NCBI GenBank assembly: GCA_937967455.1
Contig: CALCJK010000001.1
Span: 62,001 to 126,000, forward strand
Length of the DNA: 64,000 nt
From: an uncultured bacterium
GTDB taxonomy: Bacteria; Bacteroidota; Ignavibacteria; UBA10030; BY39
Reading direction: 5' to 3'
Shown here: positions 49,392 to 63,900 of the stretch, piece by piece
How positions within the stretch are numbered: the stretch's first letter is position 1
Layout of the letters: every line of letters begins with the position of its first letter
Program-made: the position numbers and the translations under genes
The notes under the pieces: model-generated
Databases searched by the model: none
Told to the model about the DNA's origin: nothing
The model's input: only the letters and a program-made list of their open reading frames with translations

Positions 49392-49886
49392 TTAAGCTGT
49401 TTGTTCAGATTCAGTTTTAGCAGTTGATTTCTCTTTTTTCTTCCAGCCCTTCTTTTCTTGCTTTAATTTAGTTTCTGATTTAGGTTTTTCCTTTACAACA
49501 TTAAAATCGACAAGCTCAAGTATGCCAAGAGGCGCTGCATCTCCAAGGCGTTGTCCAAGTTTTATGATTCGAGTATAACCGCCTGGACGCTGAGCAACCT
49601 TTGGAGCAATTTCAGTGAATAATTCCTTAACCACTTCTCTGTCTTTAATATATTTTGAAATTAACCTACGTGCATGAATATCTTTCTTATTGTTTTCATT
49701 TTCTTTAGTAAGAGCATTCTTAGCACGTGTAATTAACCTTTCAACAAAAGGTCGGACTTCTTTTGCTTTTGCAAGTGTAGTTTGAATTTTCTTATGCCTG
49801 ATTAACTCAGTTGCAAGTGTATTTAAAAGTGCTTTACGATGACTGGCTGTTCGTTTGAGTTTTCTACCGGATTTTCTATGTCGCAT
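49392..49886 (-). CDS. rplQ: 50S ribosomal protein L17 (lysine-rich C-terminal extension)
   Basis: 'MRHRKSGRKLKRTASHRKALLNTLATELIRHKKIQTTLAKAKEVRPFVERLI'. Confidence 0.97.
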   Translation of the reverse strand: MRHRKSGRKLKRTASHRKALLNTLATELIRHKKIQTTLAKAKEVRPFVERLITRAKNALTKENENNKKDIHARRLISKYIKDREVVKELFTEIAPKVAQRPGGYTRIIKLGQRLGDAAPLGILELVDFNVVKEKPKSETKLKQEKKGWKKKEKSTAKTESEQTA

Positions 49887-49907
49887 ATATTTTCCTGATT
49901 TATTACT

Positions 49908-50882
49908 TTATTCGTTTAAATATTTGTCAACATCCATACCGAAAGTAAGTCCGTATTCTTCGACAATTTCGGTAAGTTCAGATAATGATTTTCTTCCAAA
50001 GTTTTTAAATTTCATCAATTGAGAAATATCCAAGCGTACAAGGTCGCCAAGTGTTTGAATATTCCCAGATCGCAATACATTATGGGAACGCACAGATAAT
50101 TCCAATTCTTCTATTGGAGTTTTTAAGATTGCTCTAATTCGAGCTATTTCTGCATCGCTTTCACCACTTACAGTTTCACTCATCAAACGTGTAAAATAAT
50201 CAATATGATTTTTCATTATATGAGCAGCTTCTACTACCGCATTATCTGGTGTTATAGAACCATCTGTTTGAACCTCGAGAATCAACTTTTCAAAATCAGT
50301 TTGTTGACCTACTCTTGTTGGTTCAATAGTGTATTTTACATTCACTATCGGGGAGTATATTGCATCAATTGGAATGAGTCCCAAAGTTTGTTCAGGTTGG
50401 GGGTATTCTTCTGCTGGTACAAATCCCCTACCATATCCTATATACAAATCCATTTTTAAGGTTGCATCTTTCTCTAATGTCGCAAAGTATTGTTCTGGAT
50501 TTAATATTTCAATGTCGTCAGTAAATTTTTGAATATCTCCTGCAGTAAAACTTTTTGGACCTTCCAATGAGATGGAAATCTTTGAGGTCTTTTTATTTAT
50601 TACTTTAATTCTTATAGCTTTTATATTTAGAATCAATTCAGTGACATCTTCTTTAACACCAGGGATAGTAGAAAATTCATGCAAAACACCTTTTATATGT
50701 ATCGCATTAAAGGCAAAACCCGATAAAGATGAGAGCAATACTCTACGGAGGGAATTTCCTATCGTTACCCCAAATCCTTTTTCGAGTGGTTGTAAAATAA
50801 ATTTTCCATACTTATTTGTGTATGTATTACTATCAATCTCCAGCTTATCTGGCATATGCAAATTAATTGTGGCCTTATCCAT
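49908..50882 (-). CDS. rpoA: DNA-directed RNA polymerase subunit alpha
   Basis: 'GFGVTIGNSLRRVLLSSLSG', C-terminal 'LELSVRSHNVLRSGNIQTLGDLV'. Confidence 0.98.
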   Translation of the reverse strand: MDKATINLHMPDKLEIDSNTYTNKYGKFILQPLEKGFGVTIGNSLRRVLLSSLSGFAFNAIHIKGVLHEFSTIPGVKEDVTELILNIKAIRIKVINKKTSKISISLEGPKSFTAGDIQKFTDDIEILNPEQYFATLEKDATLKMDLYIGYGRGFVPAEEYPQPEQTLGLIPIDAIYSPIVNVKYTIEPTRVGQQTDFEKLILEVQTDGSITPDNAVVEAAHIMKNHIDYFTRLMSETVSGESDAEIARIRAILKTPIEELELSVRSHNVLRSGNIQTLGDLVRLDISQLMKFKNFGRKSLSELTEIVEEYGLTFGMDVDKYLNE

Positions 50883-50906
50883 ATCAATCTCCTAATTTTC
50901 TTAATA

Positions 50907-51536
50907 TTATTTCGAATACAATTCAACAATTAGCTGAGGATTTGCATTTAATGGAACGTCAGCAATTTCTGGTATATTTAAAAAAGTACCACTCATAGTT
51001 GCTTTGTCGAGGCTTAACCAGGGCAGCATAGCATTATCACGCATTCTCTTTAATGATGAATGAATGATTTCAAGTTGTTTACTTTTTTCTCTAACTTGAA
51101 TTACATCTCCAGGATTCAATAAATAAGATGGTACATTTACTATTTTATTATTAATCATGAAATGTCGATGAGCAATTAGCTGTCGTGCAGTTTTACGAGA
51201 TGGTGCAAATCCTAATCTATACACAACATTGTCAAAACGTCTCTCTAATAATTTTATTAAAGTTTCACTGGTTCTACCCGTTTGTTTTAAAGCTTTTAAG
51301 AAATAATTATGGAACTGCGTTTCCATCAATCCATACATTCTTCTAACTTTTTGTTTTTCTCTAAGCTGAATTCCATATTCAGAAATTTTTAGTCGTCGAG
51401 ATTGTCCATGTTGACCTGGGGGATAATTTCTTTTTTCAACAGGACATTTCTCAGTGAAACACTTTGTTCCTTTTAAGAATAACTTTTGACGTTCTCTTCT
51501 ACATAATCTGCAACTTGATTCAATATATCTTGCCAT
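50907..51536 (-). CDS. rpsD: 30S ribosomal protein S4
   Basis: 'CRLCRRERQKLFLKGTKC', 'LLERRFDNVVYRLGFAPSRKTARQLIAHRHF'. Confidence 0.98.
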   Translation of the reverse strand: MARYIESSCRLCRRERQKLFLKGTKCFTEKCPVEKRNYPPGQHGQSRRLKISEYGIQLREKQKVRRMYGLMETQFHNYFLKALKQTGRTSETLIKLLERRFDNVVYRLGFAPSRKTARQLIAHRHFMINNKIVNVPSYLLNPGDVIQVREKSKQLEIIHSSLKRMRDNAMLPWLSLDKATMSGTFLNIPEIADVPLNANPQLIVELYSK

Positions 51537-51563
51537 TATCTTTTATACCTTTGTTAATTTTTA

Positions 51564-51956
51564 TTAAACTCTTCTTCTTTTAGGAGGACGACATCCGTTA
51601 TGCGGAATAGGGGTAATATCCCTAATAGATGTTATTTCCAAACCTACAGTTTGTAATGACCTTATAGCTGCCTCTCTACCTGCACCGGGTCCTTTTACAT
51701 AGACATCTACTTTTCTGAGTCCGAGATCATATGCTTCCTTTGCGGCAGCTTCAGCAGTTACCTGCGCAGCAAAAGGTGTATTTTTTCTAGAACCTTTAAA
51801 TCCGTTTTTCCCAGCGGAAGACCAGCTAATTGTATTACCATAAATGTCTGTAATGGTTACAATCACATTATTGAATGTAGCTTTAATATATACTTTGCCA
51901 CTTACATCAACTTGAATTTTCTTCTTCTTTTTTCCTGTTTGTTGGGTATTAGCCAT
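51564..51956 (-). CDS. rpsK: 30S ribosomal protein S11
   Basis: '[38 protein letters not shown]...[11 protein letters not shown]'. Confidence 0.98.
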
Positions 51957-51983
51957 TTATAACTCCAATTATTATTTTCATTT

Positions 51984-52367
51984 TTATTTCTTAGCAGTAG
52001 CTTTCTTCTTACCAGCAACTGTTTTACGCTTACCTTTCCTGGTTCTGGCATTTGTACGGGTTCTTTGTCCACGAACAGGTAATCCTTTACGATGTCTGAT
52101 TCCACGATAACATCCAATATCCATCAGACGTTTAATATTCATCTGAACTTCGCTTCTGAGGGCACCTTCTACTTTAAAATCCGAAGTAATAATGGAACGA
52201 ATTTTAGCTATTTCTTCGTCAGTTAGTTCACCTATTCGTTTGTTAAAATCCACTCCAGCTGCTGAAAGAATTTTTTGAGCACTTGTTCTACCTATACCAT
52301 AAATATAAGTCAAGCCAATTTCGGCTCTTTTATTTTTTGGTAAATCAATTCCTGCTATTCTTGCCAC
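51984..52367 (-). CDS. rpsM: 30S ribosomal protein S13
   Basis: '[34 protein letters not shown]', '[22 protein letters not shown]'. Confidence 0.98.
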
Positions 52368-52393
52368 TTATGATTCCTTTCAAATTTAATTAA

Positions 52394-52510
52394 TTATCCT
52401 TGACGTTGTTTGTGCTTTGGATTTTTTTTACATATTACATAAACTGTACCTTTTCGGCGTACGATTTTACAGTTTTCACAAATTTTTTTAATCGATGAAC
52501 GAACTTTCAT
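52394..52510 (-). CDS. rpmJ: 50S ribosomal protein L36
   Basis: Hand translation, not in ORF track: [38 protein letters not shown]. Confidence 0.97.
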
Positions 52511-52521
52511 TTTATTCTCCG

Positions 52522-52740
52522 TTATTTATACCTATAAGTTATTCTCCCCTTTGTTAAATCATAAGGGGATAGTTCAACTGTGACTTTATCACCAACTAAT
52601 ATTTTTATATAATTCATTCGCATTTTTCCAGATACATGAGCAATAATTTCGTGTCCATTTTCCAGACGTACTCTAAACATTGCATTTGGCAATGTTTCAA
52701 TGATTGTTCCGTCAATTTTTATAGGACCTTGTTTTGCCAT
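52522..52740 (-). CDS. infA: translation initiation factor IF-1
   Basis: 72 aa; '[59 protein letters not shown]'. Confidence 0.98.
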
Positions 52741-52742
52741 AT

Positions 52743-53501
52743 TTATTTAGTTAATATTTCCGGATCCGAATCTGTTATACATATCGTATGTTCAAAATGT
52801 GCAGATGGTTTTCCATCAAGTGTTTTTACAGTCCAACCATCTGAATTAAATTTTACTTTATACGAGCCCATATTTACCATCGGTTCAATAGCAAGCGTCA
52901 TACCCGGTTTTAATAATATACCTGTTCCAGGTTCTCCGTAATTTGGTATTGGTGGTTCTTCATGAAGATTTCTGCCAATTCCATGTCCTACCAAATCACG
53001 TACTACCGAAAATCCTGCAGCTTCAACATATCTTTGAACTGCTGCCGAAATATCGTGAACACGATTTCCAGCACGAGCTTTTTCAATTCCTTTATACAAC
53101 GACTCTTCAGTTATTTTTAACAATTTCATTTTCTCTTCTGAGACTTTTCCAACCGGAAAAGATTTTGCAGCATCACCGTAATAATTATTTTTTTTTACAC
53201 CTACATCAATCGAAATTATTTGTCCTTCTTCCAATCGTCTGTCATCAGGTATACCATGAACAACTTCATCATCTATCGAAGTACACAATGAAGCCGGATA
53301 TAAATTTTTTTTATCGTTTCCATAACCTTTAAAAGCAGGTTCGGCTTCCTGTGATCTTATATAATTTTCAGCTATTTCGTCCAACTCTTTTGTTGTAATT
53401 CCTGGCTTTATATACGATTCGAGTAACTTCAAAACCTCTGCAACTATTCTACAACTTTCTTTAACTAGTATGATTTCTTCCCTGCTCTTTATATTAATCA
53501 T
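52743..53501 (-). CDS. map: type I methionine aminopeptidase
   Basis: '[32 protein letters not shown]', '[18 protein letters not shown]', 'LAIEPMV'. Confidence 0.97.
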
Positions 53502-53522
53502 CTTGTGTTAAGTCTTGGATAA

Positions 53523-54860
53523 TTAATATCTTCTGCCCTTTATATGACCACTCTTGAGAAAACCATCATAATGACGCATTACAAGATGAGATTCAATCTG
53601 TTGCAATGTATCCAGACCTACACCTACAACAATCAGCAAGCTTGTTCCACCAAAGAAACTTGCAAAAGAACCAGTTACACCTAATTTCATCATAAAAGTG
53701 GGCAATATTGCAATTATTGCCAGAAAAATTGAGCCTGGTAGAGTTATTTTTGTCAGAATATTATCAATAAAATCTGATGTATTTTTACCCGGGCGAATTC
53801 CAGGAATAAATCCACCCTGTTTCTGCATAGTTTCCGCAACATCTTTTGGATTAAAAGCAATTGCAGTATAAAAATATGTAAAGAACACAATCATAATACC
53901 ATAGATAAATGAATACACAAACGAAGTATGATCAAAATATTTTGATATACTCGCCATAAATTCACTTTCCGGAAAGAATGTTAGAATTGTACTTGGTATA
54001 AACATTATGGATTGAGCAAATATTATTGGCATAACACCTGCAGTGTTCACACGCATAGGGATATATTGAGTAACACCACCATATACTTTCCGACCTATTA
54101 CTCTTTTAGCATATTGAACTGGGATTCTTCGAGTTCCCTGTGTTACCATAATTACCCCAGCGACTATTAGAACCATTGCTGCTATTATAACCAATTCGAT
54201 AATAATACTTCTGGCACCAGAACTTACAAGCTGGAATTCATCTAAAACAGCATGTGGAAAACGTGCGATAATACCTATAAATATTATCAAAGAGATCCCA
54301 TTACCAATTCCACGTTCAGTAATTTGTTCACCAAGCCACATCATGAAAATAGTTCCACTTGTTAGCACAATTATTGTACTAATGAAAAAACCAATTCCTT
54401 GAACTTCAGGAGGTACTATTGGAATACCAGCTGCCTGCATATTAACCAACCGTACACTAACACCCCATGCCTGGAGAGCTGAGACTAATACAGTACCATA
54501 TCTTGTGAGTTGTGTAATTTTTTTTCTACCTTCTTCCCCTTCTTTTGAGAGTTTCTGGAAATAAGGTACAACTGCACCTAACAATTGAATAATAATTGAT
54601 GCACTTATATACGGCATAATACCCAGTGCAAATATTGCAGCATTATGAAACGCACCACCGACAAATAAATCATATAATCCAAATATTGTATTAGATGCCT
54701 GACTTCTTACTGCCTCAGCGAGTGCTGATGCATCAACACCTGGTAAAGTGATATGAGCACCGATGCGTACCACAATTAAAAGAGCGGCAGTGAAAATAAT
54801 TCTTTGCCTGAGCTCTTGAATTTTTAAAATATTTCTAAAACTTTCACTTAGTTTAGCCAT
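53523..54860 (-). CDS. secY: preprotein translocase subunit SecY
   Basis: 445 aa; 'LGIMPYISASIIIQLL', 'RIPVQYAKRVIGRKVYGG', 'FIPGIRPGKNT'. Confidence 0.98.
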   Translation of the reverse strand: MAKLSESFRNILKIQELRQRIIFTAALLIVVRIGAHITLPGVDASALAEAVRSQASNTIFGLYDLFVGGAFHNAAIFALGIMPYISASIIIQLLGAVVPYFQKLSKEGEEGRKKITQLTRYGTVLVSALQAWGVSVRLVNMQAAGIPIVPPEVQGIGFFISTIIVLTSGTIFMMWLGEQITERGIGNGISLIIFIGIIARFPHAVLDEFQLVSSGARSIIIELVIIAAMVLIVAGVIMVTQGTRRIPVQYAKRVIGRKVYGGVTQYIPMRVNTAGVMPIIFAQSIMFIPSTILTFFPESEFMASISKYFDHTSFVYSFIYGIMIVFFTYFYTAIAFNPKDVAETMQKQGGFIPGIRPGKNTSDFIDNILTKITLPGSIFLAIIAILPTFMMKLGVTGSFASFFGGTSLLIVVGVGLDTLQQIESHLVMRHYDGFLKSGHIKGRRY

Positions 54861-54870
54861 TTTAGTTCAT

Positions 54871-55338
54871 TTAAGATATAATTTTTGTTTTTCCGCCAGC
54901 AGCTTCAATTTTTTGAACCGCAGAATTACTAAATGCGTGAGCTGTGACGTCAAGTTTTGTTTTTAATTCTCCGTTTCCTAATATTTTTATAGGAAGAGAT
55001 TTTTTAGAAACGGCACCGATTTGATATAATATTTCTGGATTAACTACACCATCAGGAAATTTATTTGATTTAGCAAGAGTTTCTAATTTGTTGATATTTA
55101 CTATTTGATATTCAGTTTTGAAAATATTTGTAAATCCAAATTTTGGAACGCGCCGAACCAAGGGCATCTGTCCGCCTTCAAACCATGGTCGGTAACTCAC
55201 ACCAGAACGAGACCCCTGACCTTTGTGTCCACGTGTGGATGTACCACCATGTCCGGAACCCTGACCCCTTCCGATTCTTTTTCTCTTTTTTCGGGAGCCT
55301 TCTTTATATTTTAAATTTGATAATAATGCTTTTTCCAT
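54871..55338 (-). CDS. rplO: 50S ribosomal protein L15
   Basis: 'KKRKRIGRGQGSGHGGTSTRGHKGQGSRSG...FEGGQMPLVRRVPKFGF'. Start at M17 (MEKALLSNLKYKEG) avoids overlap with rpmD. Confidence 0.96.
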   Translation of the reverse strand: MEKALLSNLKYKEGSRKKRKRIGRGQGSGHGGTSTRGHKGQGSRSGVSYRPWFEGGQMPLVRRVPKFGFTNIFKTEYQIVNINKLETLAKSNKFPDGVVNPEILYQIGAVSKKSLPIKILGNGELKTKLDVTAHAFSNSAVQKIEAAGGKTKIIS

Positions 55339-55357
55339 TTTCAACCTTCTTTTAAAA

Positions 55358-55549
55358 TTATCCTTCGATTTCTTCAACCTTAACAAGGTGTTTAACTTTT
55401 TCTATCATTCCACGAATTTGTGGAGTATCCTTTTTAATAACAGAGTAATTTGGCCGACCAAGGCCTAAAGCTTTAATTGTTTTTTTGTGTTTTTCGAGTG
55501 TATCAATAATACTGTAAATTTGAGTTATTTTTAATTTTTTTTCTGCCAT
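55358..55549 (-). CDS. rpmD: 50S ribosomal protein L30
   Basis: 63 aa; 'HKKTIKALGLGRPNYSVIKKDTPQIRGMIEKVKHLV'. Confidence 0.95.
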   Translation of the reverse strand: MAEKKLKITQIYSIIDTLEKHKKTIKALGLGRPNYSVIKKDTPQIRGMIEKVKHLVKVEEIEG

Positions 55550-55558
55550 ATTTTTTTC

Positions 55559-56083
55559 CTAACTAACTTGTGTATCCGTCTTCTTTCCAAAAAGTTCGTG
55601 AAGAGATATACCACGCCGCATTGCAACTTCTTTGGCATCACTCATACTCATAAGTCCGCGTAAAGTAGCCTTAACAATATTATGAGGGTTGGTTGAACCA
55701 AGTGATTTTGTTAACACATCTTTTACACCTGCTAATTCCAAAACTGCGCGGACTCCACCACCAGCAATTAATCCAGTCCCTGGGGATGCTGGTTTTAAAA
55801 GTACTTTTGCTGCTCCATATTTGGAAATAACTGGATGTGGGATTGTACCTTTATAGATGCTAACTTCTACAATATTCTTTTTTGCATCATCAGTACCTTT
55901 TGCTATAGCATCACTTACTTCATTAGCTTTACCCAATCCAACACCTACATGACCATTTCCATCACCAACAACTACAATCGCATTAAAACTAAACCTTCGA
56001 CCACCTTTAACAACCTTAGCAACGCGGTTGATGTGTACAATTTTTTCTTTTAATTCTAATTCACTTGCTTTAAGTTTTGCCAA
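55559..56083 (-). CDS. rpsE: 30S ribosomal protein S5
   Basis: '[44 protein letters not shown]'. Confidence 0.98.
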
Positions 56084-56121
56084 ATCTTATCTCCATAAAT
56101 TTTTATAAACAAAATTGACTG

Positions 56122-56192
56122 CTGCCGGGGGAGGATTCGAACCTCCTCATACGGCTCCAAAGGCCGCTGTCCTGCCATTAGACGACCCGGCA
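56122..56192 (-). tRNA. tRNA-Gln (anticodon UUG)
   Basis: Minus strand TGCCGGG TC GTCTAATGGCAGGAC A GCGGC CTTTGGA GCCGT ATGA GGAGG TTCGAAT CCTCC CCCGGCA G: 7-bp acceptor, D-arm, 5-bp anticodon stem with loop CUUUGGA, perfect 5-bp T-arm; CCA not encoded. Confidence 0.93.
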
Positions 56193-56200
56193 AAATATTT

Positions 56201-56581
56201 TTAAAATTGCAGACCACCTTCTCGGGCACCTTCTGCTATTGCTTTTACTTTGCCGTGGTATCTATATCCACTTCTGTCAAATACAACTTTAGTTATATTT
56301 TTTTCAAGTGCTAATTTCGCCAAATGCTTACCTACTATTTTCGCCTTCTCTATCTTTGATTTGATATTAGATAACTCTTCTTGCAAATCTTTCGATTTAG
56401 TGGATGCAAAGGCTAATGTATTACCTTTGGTATCATCGATTATTTGTGCATATATATGTTTCAAGCTTCGGTAAACCGAGAGCCTTGGTCTTTCAGGTGT
56501 ACCGAAAATTTTTTTTCTTATGTGCTTTTTTATTCGATCTCTTTTCTTAAATTTGGATTTATTAATCATCTTAAATTCCAT
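56201..56581 (-). CDS. rplR: 50S ribosomal protein L18
   Basis: '[20 protein letters not shown]', '[26 protein letters not shown]'. Confidence 0.97.
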
Positions 56582-56587
56582 TTATTT

Positions 56588-57139
56588 TTACTTTGTTCCA
56601 GCTGATGCAGCAGCTTTTCCTGCTTTCCTTCTAATATATTCACCTTCATATTTTATTCCTTTACCTTTATATGGTTCAGGTGGCCTGAAGGATCTTATTT
56701 TCGCTGCAACCAAACCAACTAAATGTTTATCAATTCCTGAAATTGTTATATTTGTCGGTGTAGGCACCTCTATTTTTATTCCATCTGGAGGAGAAAAATA
56801 AATTGGGTGTGAGTATCCAAGTGCTAGCTGAATACCTTTTCCTTTGGGTTCAGCTTTATAACCGACTCCAACAATTTCTAATTTTTTCTGAAATCCTTGT
56901 GAAACTCCATGTATCATATTAGCTATTAAAGCTCTCCATAATCCATGCAAAGCTTTCACTCTTTTCTCATCTGAAATACGCTTTAAAAGGATTTCGTTTC
57001 CATTTACTTCAACTTCAATCTCATTTACCTTTTCTGCTTTTAATGTTCCTTTGGGCCCAGTTACGCTTATAATATTTCCTTGGATGTTAATCTTAACATC
57101 TTTTGGAATTGGTATTGGTTTTCTTCCTATTCTTGACAC
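56588..57139 (-). CDS. rplF: 50S ribosomal protein L6
   Basis: 'MSRIGRKPIPIPKDVKINIQGNIISVTGPKGTL', 'GYSHPIYF'. Confidence 0.98.
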   Translation of the reverse strand: MSRIGRKPIPIPKDVKINIQGNIISVTGPKGTLKAEKVNEIEVEVNGNEILLKRISDEKRVKALHGLWRALIANMIHGVSQGFQKKLEIVGVGYKAEPKGKGIQLALGYSHPIYFSPPDGIKIEVPTPTNITISGIDKHLVGLVAAKIRSFRPPEPYKGKGIKYEGEYIRRKAGKAAASAGTK

Positions 57140-57156
57140 TTTAAATGCTCCTTATA

Positions 57157-57552
57157 TTACCATATATGACATATGATTTCACCACCGACTTTTTCCTGAC
57201 GAGCTTCTTGGTCAGTCATAATTCCTTTTGGTGTAGAAATTATTGCTATACCTAAACCACCTAAGACTTTTGGTAGTTCGTCAGCTTTTTTATAAACCCT
57301 CAAGCCAGGTTTACTGATTCTCTTTAATCCATTAATAACACTTTTACCTGCATTATATTTCAAAAGAATCACCAAAATACCCGATTTATTATCAGGTTTT
57401 TCAATATAATCGATAATATATTTCTTTTCTTTTAAAATTCTTGTTATTTCTCGCTTCAAATGTGAAGAGGGTATTTCAACTTTTTTTTGATTCGCTTTTA
57501 TAGCATTTCGAATTCTTGTTAAATAGTCTGCTATTGGATCTGTTACGCTCAT
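57157..57552 (-). CDS. rpsH: 30S ribosomal protein S8
   Basis: '[31 protein letters not shown]', '[31 protein letters not shown]'. Confidence 0.98.
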
Positions 57553-57589
57553 AATTATCCGATTATTTTATTTTTAACATTTTAGAATA

Positions 57590-57775
57590 CTACCAACTTG
57601 CTTTACGAACACCTGGAATTTTTCCATCAAGTGCCATTTGACGGAAACACAATCTACATATTCCATACTTTCTGATATATGCTCTTGGTCGCCCACAAAT
57701 ATTACATCTATTATGTTGACGAACTTCATATTTGGGTGTTTTCTTTGCTTTCACCCGCATTGCTAATCTTGCCAA
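57590..57775 (-). CDS. rpsZ: 30S ribosomal protein S14 type Z (zinc form)
   Basis: 61 aa; [38 protein letters not shown]. Confidence 0.97.
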
Positions 57776-57788
57776 GTAATGCTCCTTT

Positions 57789-58421
57789 TTATGTTTGTGG
57801 TTTTACAAAAGGCATTCCAAATGCTTTCAACAATTCGTATGCCTCCTGATCAGTTTTTGCAGTTGTAACAAATGTTATATCCATACCGAAAATTTTTGTA
57901 ACTTTATCAACATCAATTTCAGGAAAAATTATTTGTTCTTTAATACCGACTGTATAGTTTCCCCTTCCATCAAAGGATTTGTCAGATAATCCTCTAAAGT
58001 CACGGATACGGGGCATTGCAATGTTAATCAATCTATCAAAAAATTCATACATTCTTTGTTTTCTTAATGTTACGCGAATTCCAATTGGCATTCCAGCTCT
58101 TAGCTTAAAGTTTGATATTGCCTGTTTGGATTTGGTTACAACAACTTTTTGACCAACTATCATTTCAAGATCCTTTGCAATAACTTCTATTATTTTGGGA
58201 TCTTGAGTTGCCTGTCCTACACCAACATTTATACATATCTTATCGAGTTTTGGAACTTGTGCAGAACTTTTGTAATTGAATATTTCTTTAAGTTTAGGTA
58301 CAATTTCGTTCTTGTATAATTCGGCTAACCTAGGCGTAACACCTTTTTCTATAGCTGATTCAGCTTGGGTATTGGTTTTTTGCTCTTTTACATTTTTTTC
58401 AGATTTTTCTTTTTTTGCCAT
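57789..58421 (-). CDS. rplE: 50S ribosomal protein L5 with charged N-terminal extension
   Basis: '[25 protein letters not shown]', '[20 protein letters not shown]'; ~28 aa Lys/Glu-rich extension. Confidence 0.97.
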
Positions 58422-58437
58422 AATATTTTCTTATTTA

Positions 58438-58761
58438 TTAAAACATTTCGTTACAACTTTTACAGATGCGCATAAATTGTTTTTTATTGGTCAGAGCATC
58501 TTTAATACGTTTACGACCGATCCTTGAAGGTTCATTACATTTTGGGCAAATTACCATCACATTTGAAACATGTATTGGAGCTTCTTTTTGCACAATTCCA
58601 CCTTGTGGATTTTTTTGTGAAGGCCGAGAATGCCTTTTTGTAATATTAACACCTTCAACGATTACTCTTGACTTATCGGGAAAAACTTTTAATACTTTTC
58701 CAGTTTTACCTCTTGCGTTTCCGCTAATTACTAAAACATTGTCGTTTTTATGAACTTTCAT
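58438..58761 (-). CDS. rplX: 50S ribosomal protein L24 (zinc-ribbon form)
   Basis: KOW '[32 protein letters not shown]'; CPKC and CKSC motifs at C-terminus. Confidence 0.96.
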
Positions 58762-58771
58762 TTTTTTTCCT

Positions 58772-59140
58772 TTATAACACTTCTGGTGCTAATGAGATTA
58801 TTTTCATAAAATTTTTTTCACGCAGTTCACGGGCAACAGGTCCAAAAATTCTTGTTCCACGGGGTTCGCCCTGTGCGTTTAAAAGGACTGCTGCATTTTC
58901 GTCAAATCTAATATAAGAGCCATCATTTCGGCGAATTTCTTTTGTAGTTCTGACTATTACAGCGCGAGAAACTTCACCTTTTTTTACTGCTGCACCGGGA
59001 ATTGCACTTTTAATTGATACAACAATTAAATCTCCTACCGTTGCATAGCGCTTATCGTGCCCGCCTAAAACTCTAATACAGCGGACTTTTTTCGCGCCTG
59101 AATTATCAGCTACAACTAGATTTGTTTCTTCCTGAATCAT
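58772..59140 (-). CDS. rplN: 50S ribosomal protein L14
   Basis: '[27 protein letters not shown]'. Confidence 0.98.
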
Positions 59141-59160
59141 TTTTATAATTCCTTTTTCAA

Positions 59161-59421
59161 TTACTTAGCTTTTTCAATAATTTCAACAAGCCGCCAGCAT
59201 TTGTTCTTACTTAAAGGTCTTGTTTCCATAATTTTAACCACATCACCAATCTTAGCTTCTTGCTTTTCATCGTGCGCCATTAGTTTAGTAGTCCTAGTAA
59301 AATATTTCTTATATAAAGGATGTGGCACCTTTCTTTCAACTGCAACTACTATACTTTTTTGCATTTTATTGCTAACAACTTTCCCAATTCTAACTTTTCT
59401 CATTGATCTTTCTTGAGTCAT
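59161..59421 (-). CDS. rpsQ: 30S ribosomal protein S17
   Basis: '[41 protein letters not shown]'. Confidence 0.97.
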
Positions 59422-59639
59422 TGCTCTGCCTCTTTCATTTTTGCTTGCTTTTGTTTTTCAACTAAAACCGTTTTCAATCTTGCAATATTCCTACGGACTA
59501 ATCTAACCTGGATAGGGCTTGATAGCTGTCGAGTTGCAAGTTGAAATTTAAGATGACTCAAATTAATTTCTTCATCTTGAATTCTTTTCTTGATTTCATC
59601 AATAGATAGTTGTCTTATTTCATGTGCTTTCATTTTCAT
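59418..59639 (-). CDS. rpmC: 50S ribosomal protein L29
   Basis: '[37 protein letters not shown]'. Confidence 0.96.
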
Positions 59640-59642
59640 ATT

Positions 59643-60065
59643 TTAACCACCTTCATAACCTGGTCTAATTACCATTTTACTTTTTATTGGAAGTTTTCTA
59701 CTTGCAATATACATTGCTTCTTCAGCCAGTGCTTTTTTAATTCCGCCTAGTTCAAACATAATGGTGCCGGGTTTTACAACCGCCACCCAGAATTCAGGGG
59801 CACCTTTTCCACTTCCCATTCTAGTTTCTGCTGGTTTCTTTGTAACTGACTTATCAGGGAATATTCTTATCCAGACTTTACCTTCTCTTTTCATAAGGCG
59901 CGTAAGTGCAACACGAGCAGCTTCGATCTGTCGCTGTGTAATCCAACCTGGTTGAAGAGCTTTCAAACCAAAATCTCCAAATGCAATTGTTGCTCCACGA
60001 GTAGCTTTGCCTTTCATCCTACCTCGTTGCGATTTTCTATATTTTACTCTTTTAGGTATTAACAT
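59643..60065 (-). CDS. rplP: 50S ribosomal protein L16
   Basis: '[37 protein letters not shown]'. Confidence 0.98.
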
Positions 60066-60080
60066 TTTATATCACCATAG

Positions 60081-60719
60081 TTATATAGTTGTTCCACTTA
60101 ATATTTCACCTTTACATATCCACACTTTTACGCCGATAGCACCATAAATAGTTTGTGCTGTTGCTGTAGCATAATCAATATCAGCGCGTAATGTGTGCAA
60201 TGGAATTCTACCTTCTTTGTATTGTTCTGTTCTTGCTATCTCAGCACCACCAAGCCTGCCTGAACACATAACGCGAACTCCTTCTGCACCCATTCTCATA
60301 GCAGAAGTAATTGCGCTCTTCATTGCACGACGGAATGAGATTCTTCCTTCTATCTGCGTTGCAATTGTTTCAGCCAACAAATAAGCATCAAGTTCAGGAC
60401 GTTTTATTTCACTTATCAATAATTTTACGTCTTTGTTAGTTATTGTCTTCAATTCTTCTTCAAGTTTAGTAATTTCCTGACCGCTCCTACCAATAACCAC
60501 TCCAGGCCGAGAAGTATGTATTGTAATTTTTGCTTGTTTTGCTGTCCGCTCAATAAATATTTTTGATATACCAGCCTTCTTTAAACGAGTTCGAATATAA
60601 TTACGAATTTTAATATCTTCTAATAATTTCCCGCTGCTATTCTTTGGCTCAAACCAATTTGAATCCCAACTTTTATTGATTCCTAATCTAAGTCCTATTG
60701 GATTTGTTTTTTGACCCAT
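60081..60719 (-). CDS. rpsC: 30S ribosomal protein S3
   Basis: '[23 protein letters not shown]', '[13 protein letters not shown]'. Confidence 0.98.
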
Positions 60720-60720
60720 A

Positions 60721-61113
60721 TTACTCCTTTTCAGCTTTCTCGGTCTTTTGAGTTATTGGTTTAGTTCCTTCTTCATGCTCAGCTACTACAATTGTAAGAT
60801 GATTTGATCTTTTTAAAATTCTATATGCTCGTCCCATTGGTGCCGGCAATATTCGCTTCATTGAAGGTCCACCATCAACAAAAGCGTTTTTAACATATAT
60901 ATTTTGTGTGTCAATACGTTTTCCTTCTGCTTTGTTCTGCAAATTTGAAATAGCTGAACGTAACACTTTCTCCACCACCTTTGATGCGTGTTTAGGTGAA
61001 AAATGTAATATTGAAAGAGCTTCTTCTACATTTTTACCACGGATTAAATCTACTACCAGGCGCATCTTCCTTGGGGAGGAAGGAATATATCTATTTATTG
61101 CTTTTGCTTCCAT
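60721..61113 (-). CDS. rplV: 50S ribosomal protein L22
   Basis: '[45 protein letters not shown]'; start taken as M5 of the track ORF. Confidence 0.96.
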
Positions 61114-61136
61114 AAGATTCTCCATTCTTTATCCGC

Positions 61137-61418
61137 TTATCCTGTTGTAGCTTCTGTTTTAAGACCCGGGTGGCCACGGAATATGCGTGTTGGAGCAAAT
61201 TCTCCTAATTTGTGTCCTACCATTCCCTCATGTACATATACAGGGATAAATTTATTACCATTGTGAACTGTAAAAGTAAGACCAACAAATTCTGGAGTTA
61301 TAGTGGATGATCTTGCATATGTTTTAATTACAGATTTTTTGCCAGATTTTTGCATTTCCTGTACTTTTTTAAGAAGCTTAGGATCAACATATGGACCTTT
61401 TTTAATTGAACGACTCAT
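61137..61418 (-). CDS. rpsS: 30S ribosomal protein S19
   Basis: '[19 protein letters not shown]', '[21 protein letters not shown]'. Confidence 0.98.
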
Positions 61419-61431
61419 AGTTTCAACTTAA

Positions 61432-62265
61432 TTATTTTTTAGTTCTTCGTTTAATTATATATTTATTAGATAATTTTCTAACTTTTCGAGTTTTCTTTCC
61501 TTTTGTATGCCAACCCCAAGGCGAGACAGGATGAGGATTTCCTTGAGGAGCCTTACCTTCACCACCACCATGAGGATGATCAACGGGATTTTGAACAACA
61601 CCACGCGACTGTGGTCTTATACCTAACCATCGTGAACGACCAGCTTTTCCAATACTTATGTTTTCATGTTCAAGATTACTTACAAAGCCAATAGTTGCAT
61701 AGCACTTTGCATGCAATTTTCTGATTTCCCCAGAAGGCATTCGAACTGTAACAAAATCACCTTCTTTAGCCATAATTTGAATTGAGACACCAGCACTTCT
61801 TGCGAGTTGTCCACCTTTTCCCGGTTTTAATTCAACATTATGTACAAATTCACCTACTGGAACATTTCCAAGTGGCATTGAATTTCCTACCTTAATTTCT
61901 GCCTCTGGTCCAGAGACGAGTGTCTCACCAACTTTTAAACCATTTGGTGCAAGTATGTATCTCTTCTCACCATCTTTATAAGTTAATAAAGCGATACGAG
62001 CTGAACGGTTCGGGTCATATTCAATTGCTGTCACTTTTGCTTCAATTCCGATTTTGTCTCTCTTGAAATCGATAATTCTATATAAACGTTTATGTCCGCC
62101 ACCTCTATGACGCGAGGTGATGCGACCTGTATTATTTCGTCCACCTGTTTTTTTAAGAGGTTCGACTAGAGATTTTTCGGGAACTGTTTTAGTAATCTCT
62201 TCGAACCCTGGAACTGTCATCCAACGTGTTCCAGGTGTAATTGGTTTTAGTTTTCTTATTGCCAT
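61432..62265 (-). CDS. rplB: 50S ribosomal protein L2
   Basis: '[25 protein letters not shown]', '[26 protein letters not shown]'. Confidence 0.98.
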
Positions 62266-62281
62266 ATTTCATTTATTCCTT

Positions 62282-62322
62282 GGTCAGATAATATGAGTAT
62301 TTAAGTTACTCTTTTCCTGACC
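62282..62322 (-). promoter_or_regulatory. imperfect hairpin in the rplW-rplB intergenic gap
   Basis: Nested inverted repeats GGTCAG...CTGACC and GAGTA...TACTC in a 70-nt non-coding gap. Confidence 0.45.
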
Positions 62323-62335
62323 CGCAAAGAATGGA

Positions 62336-62629
62336 TTATATATTTTCAAAGAATTCTATCTTATCACCTTCTTTAAGTGTTACGATAGCTTTTTTCCATT
62401 GTGCGGTTCTGCCTGTAAAGCGCCCGCGGCGGGTCAATTGAGTTTTCTGTTTTCCTTTATAATTAATTGTTCTTACGCTTAATACTTTTACATTAAACTT
62501 TTTTTCGATTGCTTTTTGTATTTCAATTTTATTAGCATTTCTTTCAACTTCAAAAGCATATTGCCTTTTTGCTTCTAGCTCTGTCATCTTTTCAGTAACT
62601 ATTGGTCTGAATATTATCGTAGTATTCAT
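62336..62629 (-). CDS. rplW: 50S ribosomal protein L23
   Basis: '[45 protein letters not shown]'. Confidence 0.97.
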
Positions 62630-62644
62630 AAAATTCTCTTTGTA

Positions 62645-63268
62645 TTAAAAAGTTTTTTGCAATTCTTCAACAGCACTTTTCTGGAATAATAAAACTTTAT
62701 TATTCATAATATCATATGTTGATACTTTATTTGCTTCGATTATATTGAGATTTGGAATATTTCTTGAAGCAAGATAAAGTTTTTTATCTGTTTGTGGAAC
62801 TATAAATAATGTTTTTTTACTTTCAAGTTTTAGAGCTTTTAATATAGAGAACATATTTTTAGTTTTAGGTTCTTCGAATGTGAAATCTTCAACGATTTTT
62901 ATATCAGATTCCTTAGCTCTATAACTTAGAGCGGATTTTCTGGCTAACTTTTTTACTTTTTCTGGAAGAGAAATTGAATAATCTCTTGGAACTGGTCCAA
63001 AAATTGTCCCTCCACCTTTCCAGAGTGGAGATCTGAAACTACCAACTCGAGCTCTACCAGTATGTTTTTGTCTCCAGGGTTTTTTGCCAGTACCACTAAC
63101 TTCTGCTCTAGTTTTTGTTTTATGTGTGCCTTGCCTTTGATTTGCAAGATAAGCACGAACAGCTAAATAAATAGCATGATCATTTGGTTCAATTCCAAAA
63201 ACACTAGGATCGAGTGTAATTTTTTCGCCACTCGGAGTTCCATCTTTTTTGTAAACTTCAAGTTCCAT
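62645..63268 (-). CDS. rplD: 50S ribosomal protein L4
   Basis: 'GTHKTKTRAEVSGTGKKPWRQKHTGRARVGSFRSPLWKGGGTIFGPVPRDY'. Confidence 0.98.
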   Translation of the reverse strand: MELEVYKKDGTPSGEKITLDPSVFGIEPNDHAIYLAVRAYLANQRQGTHKTKTRAEVSGTGKKPWRQKHTGRARVGSFRSPLWKGGGTIFGPVPRDYSISLPEKVKKLARKSALSYRAKESDIKIVEDFTFEEPKTKNMFSILKALKLESKKTLFIVPQTDKKLYLASRNIPNLNIIEANKVSTYDIMNNKVLLFQKSAVEELQKTF

Positions 63269-63270
63269 TT

Positions 63271-63900
63271 TTATTTAGATTCTTTATGAATTTCTAAGTA
63301 ACAGTTAATATGACCAGGAACAGAACCTTTAACAAGTAAAAGGTTAGATTCCGGAATTACCTGAACAACTTTCAAATTTTTGATTGTTGTTCGTTTATTG
63401 CCCATACGTCCAGCCATTCGCTGACCTTTGAATACTCTAGATGGATAAGAACTACCTCCAATCGAACCAGGTGCTCTTACACGATCACTTTGGCCATGAG
63501 TCGTAGAACCGCCGCCAAAATGATGTCTTTTTACAACACCTTGAAAACCTCTTCCTTTGGAATTGCCTGAAACTGATACGATATCTCCTTTGGAGAAAAT
63601 ATTTTCCACTTTAATAACATCACCCAATTTAAAGTTAGAGATATCGAATCCTTTAAATTCACGCAATACCTTTTTTGGAGTAATTCCAGCTCTTTCAAAG
63701 TGTCCTTTTAGAGGTTTAGTAACATTCTTTGCCTTTTTATCTTCAAATCCTAACTGAATTGCGTTATATCCATCTTTCTCTGCAGTTTTGATTTGAGTTA
63801 TAAAACAAGGACCAGCTTCGATTATAGTGCATGGAATAACTTCACCATGTTCATCAAAAATACTTGTCATTCCTATTTTTTTACCTAATATTCCAGTCAT
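63271..63900 (-). CDS. rplC: 50S ribosomal protein L3
   Basis: '[36 protein letters not shown]', '[52 protein letters not shown]'. Confidence 0.98.

What the first reader, a model, noticed from the sequence alone, without database searches (positions are those of the whole stretch)
56122..56192. tRNA-Gln(UUG) embedded in the spc ribosomal protein operon between rplR and rpsE
A well-folded tRNA-Gln on the coding strand nearly fills the 117-nt gap between rplR and rpsE, which are normally adjacent. It has no encoded CCA. If co-transcribed, RNase P and RNase Z cleavage to release the tRNA would cut the spc mRNA in two, giving potential differential stability of upstream and downstream halves and coupling tRNA-Gln supply to ribosome synthesis.
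Basis: partly seen in the sequence, partly recalled or inferred. Interest (0 to 1): 0.72.

Follow-up and report, generated by a model that had tools for sequence, protein, structure and literature searches.

The report
Glutamine tRNA inside ribosomal-protein operon
In a large group of little-studied bacteria (Ignavibacteria and close kin), the cell's only detected gene for the tRNA that reads the glutamine codon CAA lies inside a ribosomal-protein operon, so making that tRNA probably means cutting the ribosomal-protein messenger RNA in two.

Summary
Observation confirmed. A tRNA-Gln(UUG), 56192-56122 minus strand, lies on the coding strand between rplR and rpsE of an intact S10-spc cluster: 8 nt after the rplR stop, 38 nt before the rpsE start, no encoded CCA. 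It is the only tRNA-Gln(UUG) found in this 99%-complete genome; CAA is 72% of Gln codons in the window.

It is not an assembly fluke. In a 149-genome class sample, 61 genomes carry this same tRNA lineage directly upstream of rpsE, and 81 carry a different, classical tRNA-Gln(UUG), elsewhere in all those examined. None carries both. The 71 slot copies inspected show compensatory stem changes; 70 keep the UUG anticodon.

There is little or no room for a private promoter (leaders as short as 4 nt) and promoter-like sites upstream are at chance level. Co-transcription and excision by RNase P are strongly inferred, not shown. The proposed RNase Z step is unsupported: no confident RNase Z was found, while RNase P RNA and RNase E/G are present. 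Differential mRNA stability and supply coupling are plausible but untested.

Verdict: a real, conserved, apparently undescribed variant of the known mixed tRNA-mRNA operon.

The parts
56122..56192 (-). tRNA-Gln(UUG), 71 nt without CCA, U1-A72 pair, discriminator G
56193..56200 (-). 8-nt leader between the rplR stop codon and the tRNA 5' end; predicted RNase P cut at 56193/56192
56084..56121 (-). 38-nt A/T-rich trailer, which becomes the rpsE 5' leader with a GGAG ribosome-binding sequence
56201..56581 (-). rplR (L18), upstream cistron
55559..56083 (-). rpsE (S5), downstream cistron, TTG start
56588..63900 (-). proximal part of the cluster, rplC to rplF, in usual order
49392..55549 (-). distal part of the cluster: rpmD, rplO, secY, map, infA, rpsM, rpsK, rpsD, rpoA, rplQ
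   Evidence: rpmD, rplO and secY; the rest named from the translations

Best explanation
The tRNA is transcribed as an internal cistron of the ribosomal-protein transcript. RNase P releases its 5' end; an endonuclease (most likely RNase E/G in the A/T-rich trailer, then trimming and CCA addition) makes its 3' end. Each excision separates an mRNA ending after rplR from an mRNA starting just before rpsE. As the only tRNA found that reads CAA in this genome, its supply is tied to transcription of ribosomal-protein genes. Shown here: the gene, its slot, its conservation, its uniqueness, its mutual exclusivity with the classical tRNA-Gln(UUG). Inferred: co-transcription, the cuts, and any effect on mRNA stability or on coupling of rplR and rpsE translation.
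For: Leader 8 nt here and 4-81 nt in 70 loci, trailer 20-125 nt: often too short for a private promoter outside rplR. Promoter-like matches within 120 nt upstream in 6 of 71 loci against a shuffle mean of 4.85; no minus-strand promoter-like site between 56192 and 57000 and no minus-strand terminator-like site in 55400-57000. Same strand and slot in 61 of 149 class genomes. Sole UUG tRNA-Gln found. Compensatory stem changes. RNase P RNA and RNase E/G present. CAA 366 against CAG 143.
Against: No transcript data. An unusual promoter inside rplR would not be seen by the consensus scans. No confident RNase Z, so the 3' step is a guess. Lineages have lost or never had the slot without any other change in the cluster, so it is not indispensable to the operon.
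Confidence: 0.8

Rival explanations
1. Independent unit: the tRNA has its own promoter within rplR and comes from a short transcript; the operon mRNA is mostly unaffected.
For: Promoters of this group are poorly known. Leaders of 30-81 nt in several families leave some room.
Against: Leaders of 4-11 nt in many genomes; promoter-like sites at shuffle level; no minus-strand terminator-like site after the tRNA. Even then, read-through operon transcripts would be RNase P substrates.
Confidence: 0.12
2. Neutral hitch-hiker: the tRNA is co-transcribed and cut out, but this has no regulatory role; the slot was fixed by chance when this lineage's tRNA replaced the classical one, and is kept only because the gene is essential.
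For: Perfect either/or with the classical tRNA is enough to explain retention. Leader and trailer lengths vary. Family f6 and others do without it.
Against: 61 slot-type tRNAs all stayed at the same junction with none found elsewhere in genomes where rpsE was located, although tRNA genes usually move readily (established knowledge). This is weak evidence for selection on position.
Confidence: 0.5
3. Assembly error or pseudogene.
For: The window comes from a 39-contig assembly.
Against: Same junction in tens of independent assemblies, including single-contig genomes (G158 in L305, G163 in L315) and named GTDB records L153, L154, L159-L161, L164, L169, L172. Paired stems with compensatory changes.
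Confidence: 0.01

Closest known systems
E. coli tufB operon (tRNA Thr-Tyr-Gly-Thr before tufB) and tRNA-Trp at the secE operon (PMC8046335)
   Same: tRNA genes co-arranged with translation genes of the same supercluster; tRNA excision creates the mRNA 5' end. This genome has comparable tRNA groups (Thr-Tyr-Gly-Thr, then Trp).
   Different: Those tRNAs lie before or between operons, not inside the spc ribosomal-protein operon; PMC8046335 lists no spc tRNA in the passages found.
E. coli secG-leuU (Mohanty and Kushner 2008, seen only as a reference in PMC3985628)
   Same: mRNA and tRNA in one transcript, with RNase P separating them.
   Different: There the tRNA is the 3' cistron of the transcript (from memory); here it is internal and followed by essential cistrons.
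Euglena chloroplast ribosomal-protein operon with an internal trnI (Christopher and Hallick 1990; from memory, not held)
   Same: tRNA internal to a ribosomal-protein operon; the closest arrangement known to me.
   Different: Organelle, other slot, other tRNA.
Mitochondrial tRNA punctuation (from memory)
   Same: tRNA excision separates mRNAs.
   Different: There it is genome-wide; here a single tRNA at one operon junction.

Membership tests
Functional bacterial tRNA-Gln(UUG) | Cloverleaf above family threshold, UUG anticodon | tested here: met
Functional bacterial tRNA-Gln(UUG) | Weak U1-A72 pair typical of bacterial tRNA-Gln | tested here: met
   T1-A70 of the 71-nt body in all 71 slots
Functional bacterial tRNA-Gln(UUG) | Classical D-arm GCCAAGYGGTAAGGC | tested here: not met
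   GTCTAATGGCAGGAC instead; the classical form is found in slot-less genomes
Functional bacterial tRNA-Gln(UUG) | Aminoacylated with glutamine in the cell | not testable with these tools
   GlnRS is encoded, GatB not detected
Mixed tRNA-mRNA operon | Same strand, between operon genes, no intervening promoter or terminator | tested here: met
   by consensus scans only
Mixed tRNA-mRNA operon | One transcript spans mRNA and tRNA | not testable with these tools
   no RNA data
Mixed tRNA-mRNA operon | RNase P available for 5' cleavage | tested here: met
   RNase P RNA, 188 bits
   only a sub-threshold metallo-beta-lactamase-type match, 76.5 bits against 293

The most novel reading that the evidence does not exclude
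The tRNA acts as an obligatory processing signal that splits the spc operon mRNA, frees the distal half from proximal feedback and translational coupling, and makes supply of the only CAA-reading tRNA track ribosomal-protein transcription; this control point replaced the classical tRNA-Gln gene across a large part of Ignavibacteria.
Probability: 0.25. Interest if true: 0.72.

Novelty: new variant of a known kind. Interest (0 to 1): 0.56.

Why it matters
rplR and rpsE are normally adjacent in bacteria. Here many families of one class route their only detected CAA-decoding tRNA through that junction, so tRNA maturation and ribosomal-protein mRNA integrity are probably not independent there. The strict either/or pattern with the classical tRNA-Gln, and the closely related slot-positive f4 and slot-negative f6 families, give natural comparison pairs for asking what a tRNA does to the mRNA it is cut from.

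Tried and rejected
1) rpsE start codon linked to the slot: TTG looked exclusive in the first loci, but the counts (slot: TTG 44, GTG 15, ATG 11; no slot: TTG 37, ATG 33, GTG 28, the latter including distant phyla) do not support a clean link. 2) Charging route (GlnRS versus GatCAB) as the cause of the tRNA switch: both occur in both groups. 3) Remnant tRNA in the long slot-less gaps of f8 and f25: none found. 4) Slot-positive families as one clade: rejected by AU test, p 0.002 with f6 included and 5e-6 without (LG+G4, quick tree). One early gain with several losses, or transfer, both remain possible. 5) Origin from tRNA-Glu because of the similar D-arm: overall identity to Glu tRNAs only 58-64%, to tRNA-Gln(CUG) 63-76%; origin unresolved. 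6) Literature: no paper found in the held library describes it; the Melioribacter roseus genome paper reports 45 tRNA genes and no such arrangement in the passages found.

Full report
What is there. ARAGORN and Rfam agree on a tRNA-Gln(UUG) at 56192-56122 on the minus strand, the coding strand of the S10-spc-alpha cluster at 49.4-63.9 kb. The rplR stop ends at 56201 and the rpsE TTG start is at 56083. The 117-nt gap is 8 nt of leader, 71 nt of tRNA and 38 nt of A/T-rich trailer with a GGAG ribosome-binding sequence. The bases after the discriminator are CAG, so CCA must be added after processing, as for most tRNAs of this genome. The minimum-free-energy fold of the gap shows the tRNA stems.

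Is it the only one? The genome (G000, 99% complete) has 46 tRNA matches. Typing them gives exactly one tRNA-Gln(UUG), this one, and one tRNA-Gln(CUG) beside tRNA-Glu(CUC) on another contig. CAA outnumbers CAG 366 to 143 in 43 long ORFs of the window, and 101 to 42 in the ribosomal-protein cluster. The embedded gene therefore appears to be the sole source of the major glutamine isoacceptor.

Is it conserved? Same-order relatives show the same tRNA in the same slot in families f1-f5 but not f6. Named GTDB records with the slot are labelled Ignavibacteria, Ignavibacteriae or Ignavibacteriales, for example L153, L161 and L172. No slot tRNA was seen in the fetched Chloroherpeton, Kapaibacterium, Balneolales, Hymenobacter, Bacillota and other records. 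In a class-level sample of 149 genomes, 61 have the slot-type tRNA directly upstream of rpsE, 81 have a different, classical tRNA-Gln(UUG), none has both and 7 have neither. One further slot-type tRNA (G155) lies in a genome where rpsE was not found. The ribosomal-protein genes keep their order in both groups.

Two tRNA lineages. The slot tRNA begins TGCCGGGTCGTCTAATGGCAGGAC or a compensated variant of it, whereas slot-less genomes carry the classical TGGGGYGTAGCCAAGYGGTAAGGC form; identity between the two is 61-75% in the examples compared. So the operon copy does not look like the old gene moved; it looks like another lineage that stands in for it. Its origin is unresolved. Whether a genome has GlnRS or GatB does not explain the choice; this genome has GlnRS and no detected GatB.

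History. A tree of up to 21 concatenated proteins of the cluster places f6 firmly beside slot-positive f4 and needs at least three to four changes of state. The AU test rejects all slot-positive families as one clade, with or without f6 (quick LG+G4 tree, so a moderate claim). The simplest readings are an early gain with several losses, or transfer of the segment. The data do not separate them.

How it most likely works. Leaders are 4-81 nt (4-11 nt in many genomes) and trailers 20-125 nt. Promoter-like matches in the 120 nt upstream are at shuffle level. No minus-strand promoter-like site lies between 56192 and 57000, and no minus-strand terminator-like site lies in 55400-57000. The tRNA is therefore inferred to be an internal cistron of the r-protein transcript. 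RNase P RNA is encoded, so 5' maturation is expected to cut the message 8 nt after the rplR stop. At that distance a ribosome terminating on rplR should overlap the acceptor stem, so translation and processing may compete (inference). RNase E/G cleavage in the trailer plus trimming and CCA addition is the more economical guess, though a divergent or missed RNase Z remains possible. The distal mRNA would start within about 38 nt of rpsE. Different stability of the halves, release from proximal feedback, and coupling of tRNA supply to r-protein transcription follow logically but are untested. Co-transcription alone does not imply a regulatory role, and a neutral reading is a serious rival.

Place among known things. 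[quoted passage not shown] From memory, the Euglena chloroplast has a ribosomal-protein operon with an internal trnI. What is unusual here is the slot inside spc, the sole-isoacceptor status, the depth of conservation in bacteria, and the strict either/or with the classical tRNA. I rate it a new variant of a known kind.

Noticed in passing
Sequencing error or a real anticodon change.
   Followed up: partly
L116 and L117 (family f8), rplR-rpsE gap: These slot-less genomes have a 137-141 nt gap without tRNA; both gaps hold a TATCTTTG stretch that resembles the Bacteroidota -7 promoter motif (TAnnTTTG, from memory), so the distal half may have its own promoter there.
   Followed up: no
slot tRNA of G076 (L127, family f14) against the window: 99% identical tRNA in a family that lies far from the window's family in the r-protein tree: strong conservation or possible transfer.
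   Followed up: no
G000 whole genome: No confident RNase Z match although most tRNA genes lack an encoded CCA.
   Followed up: partly
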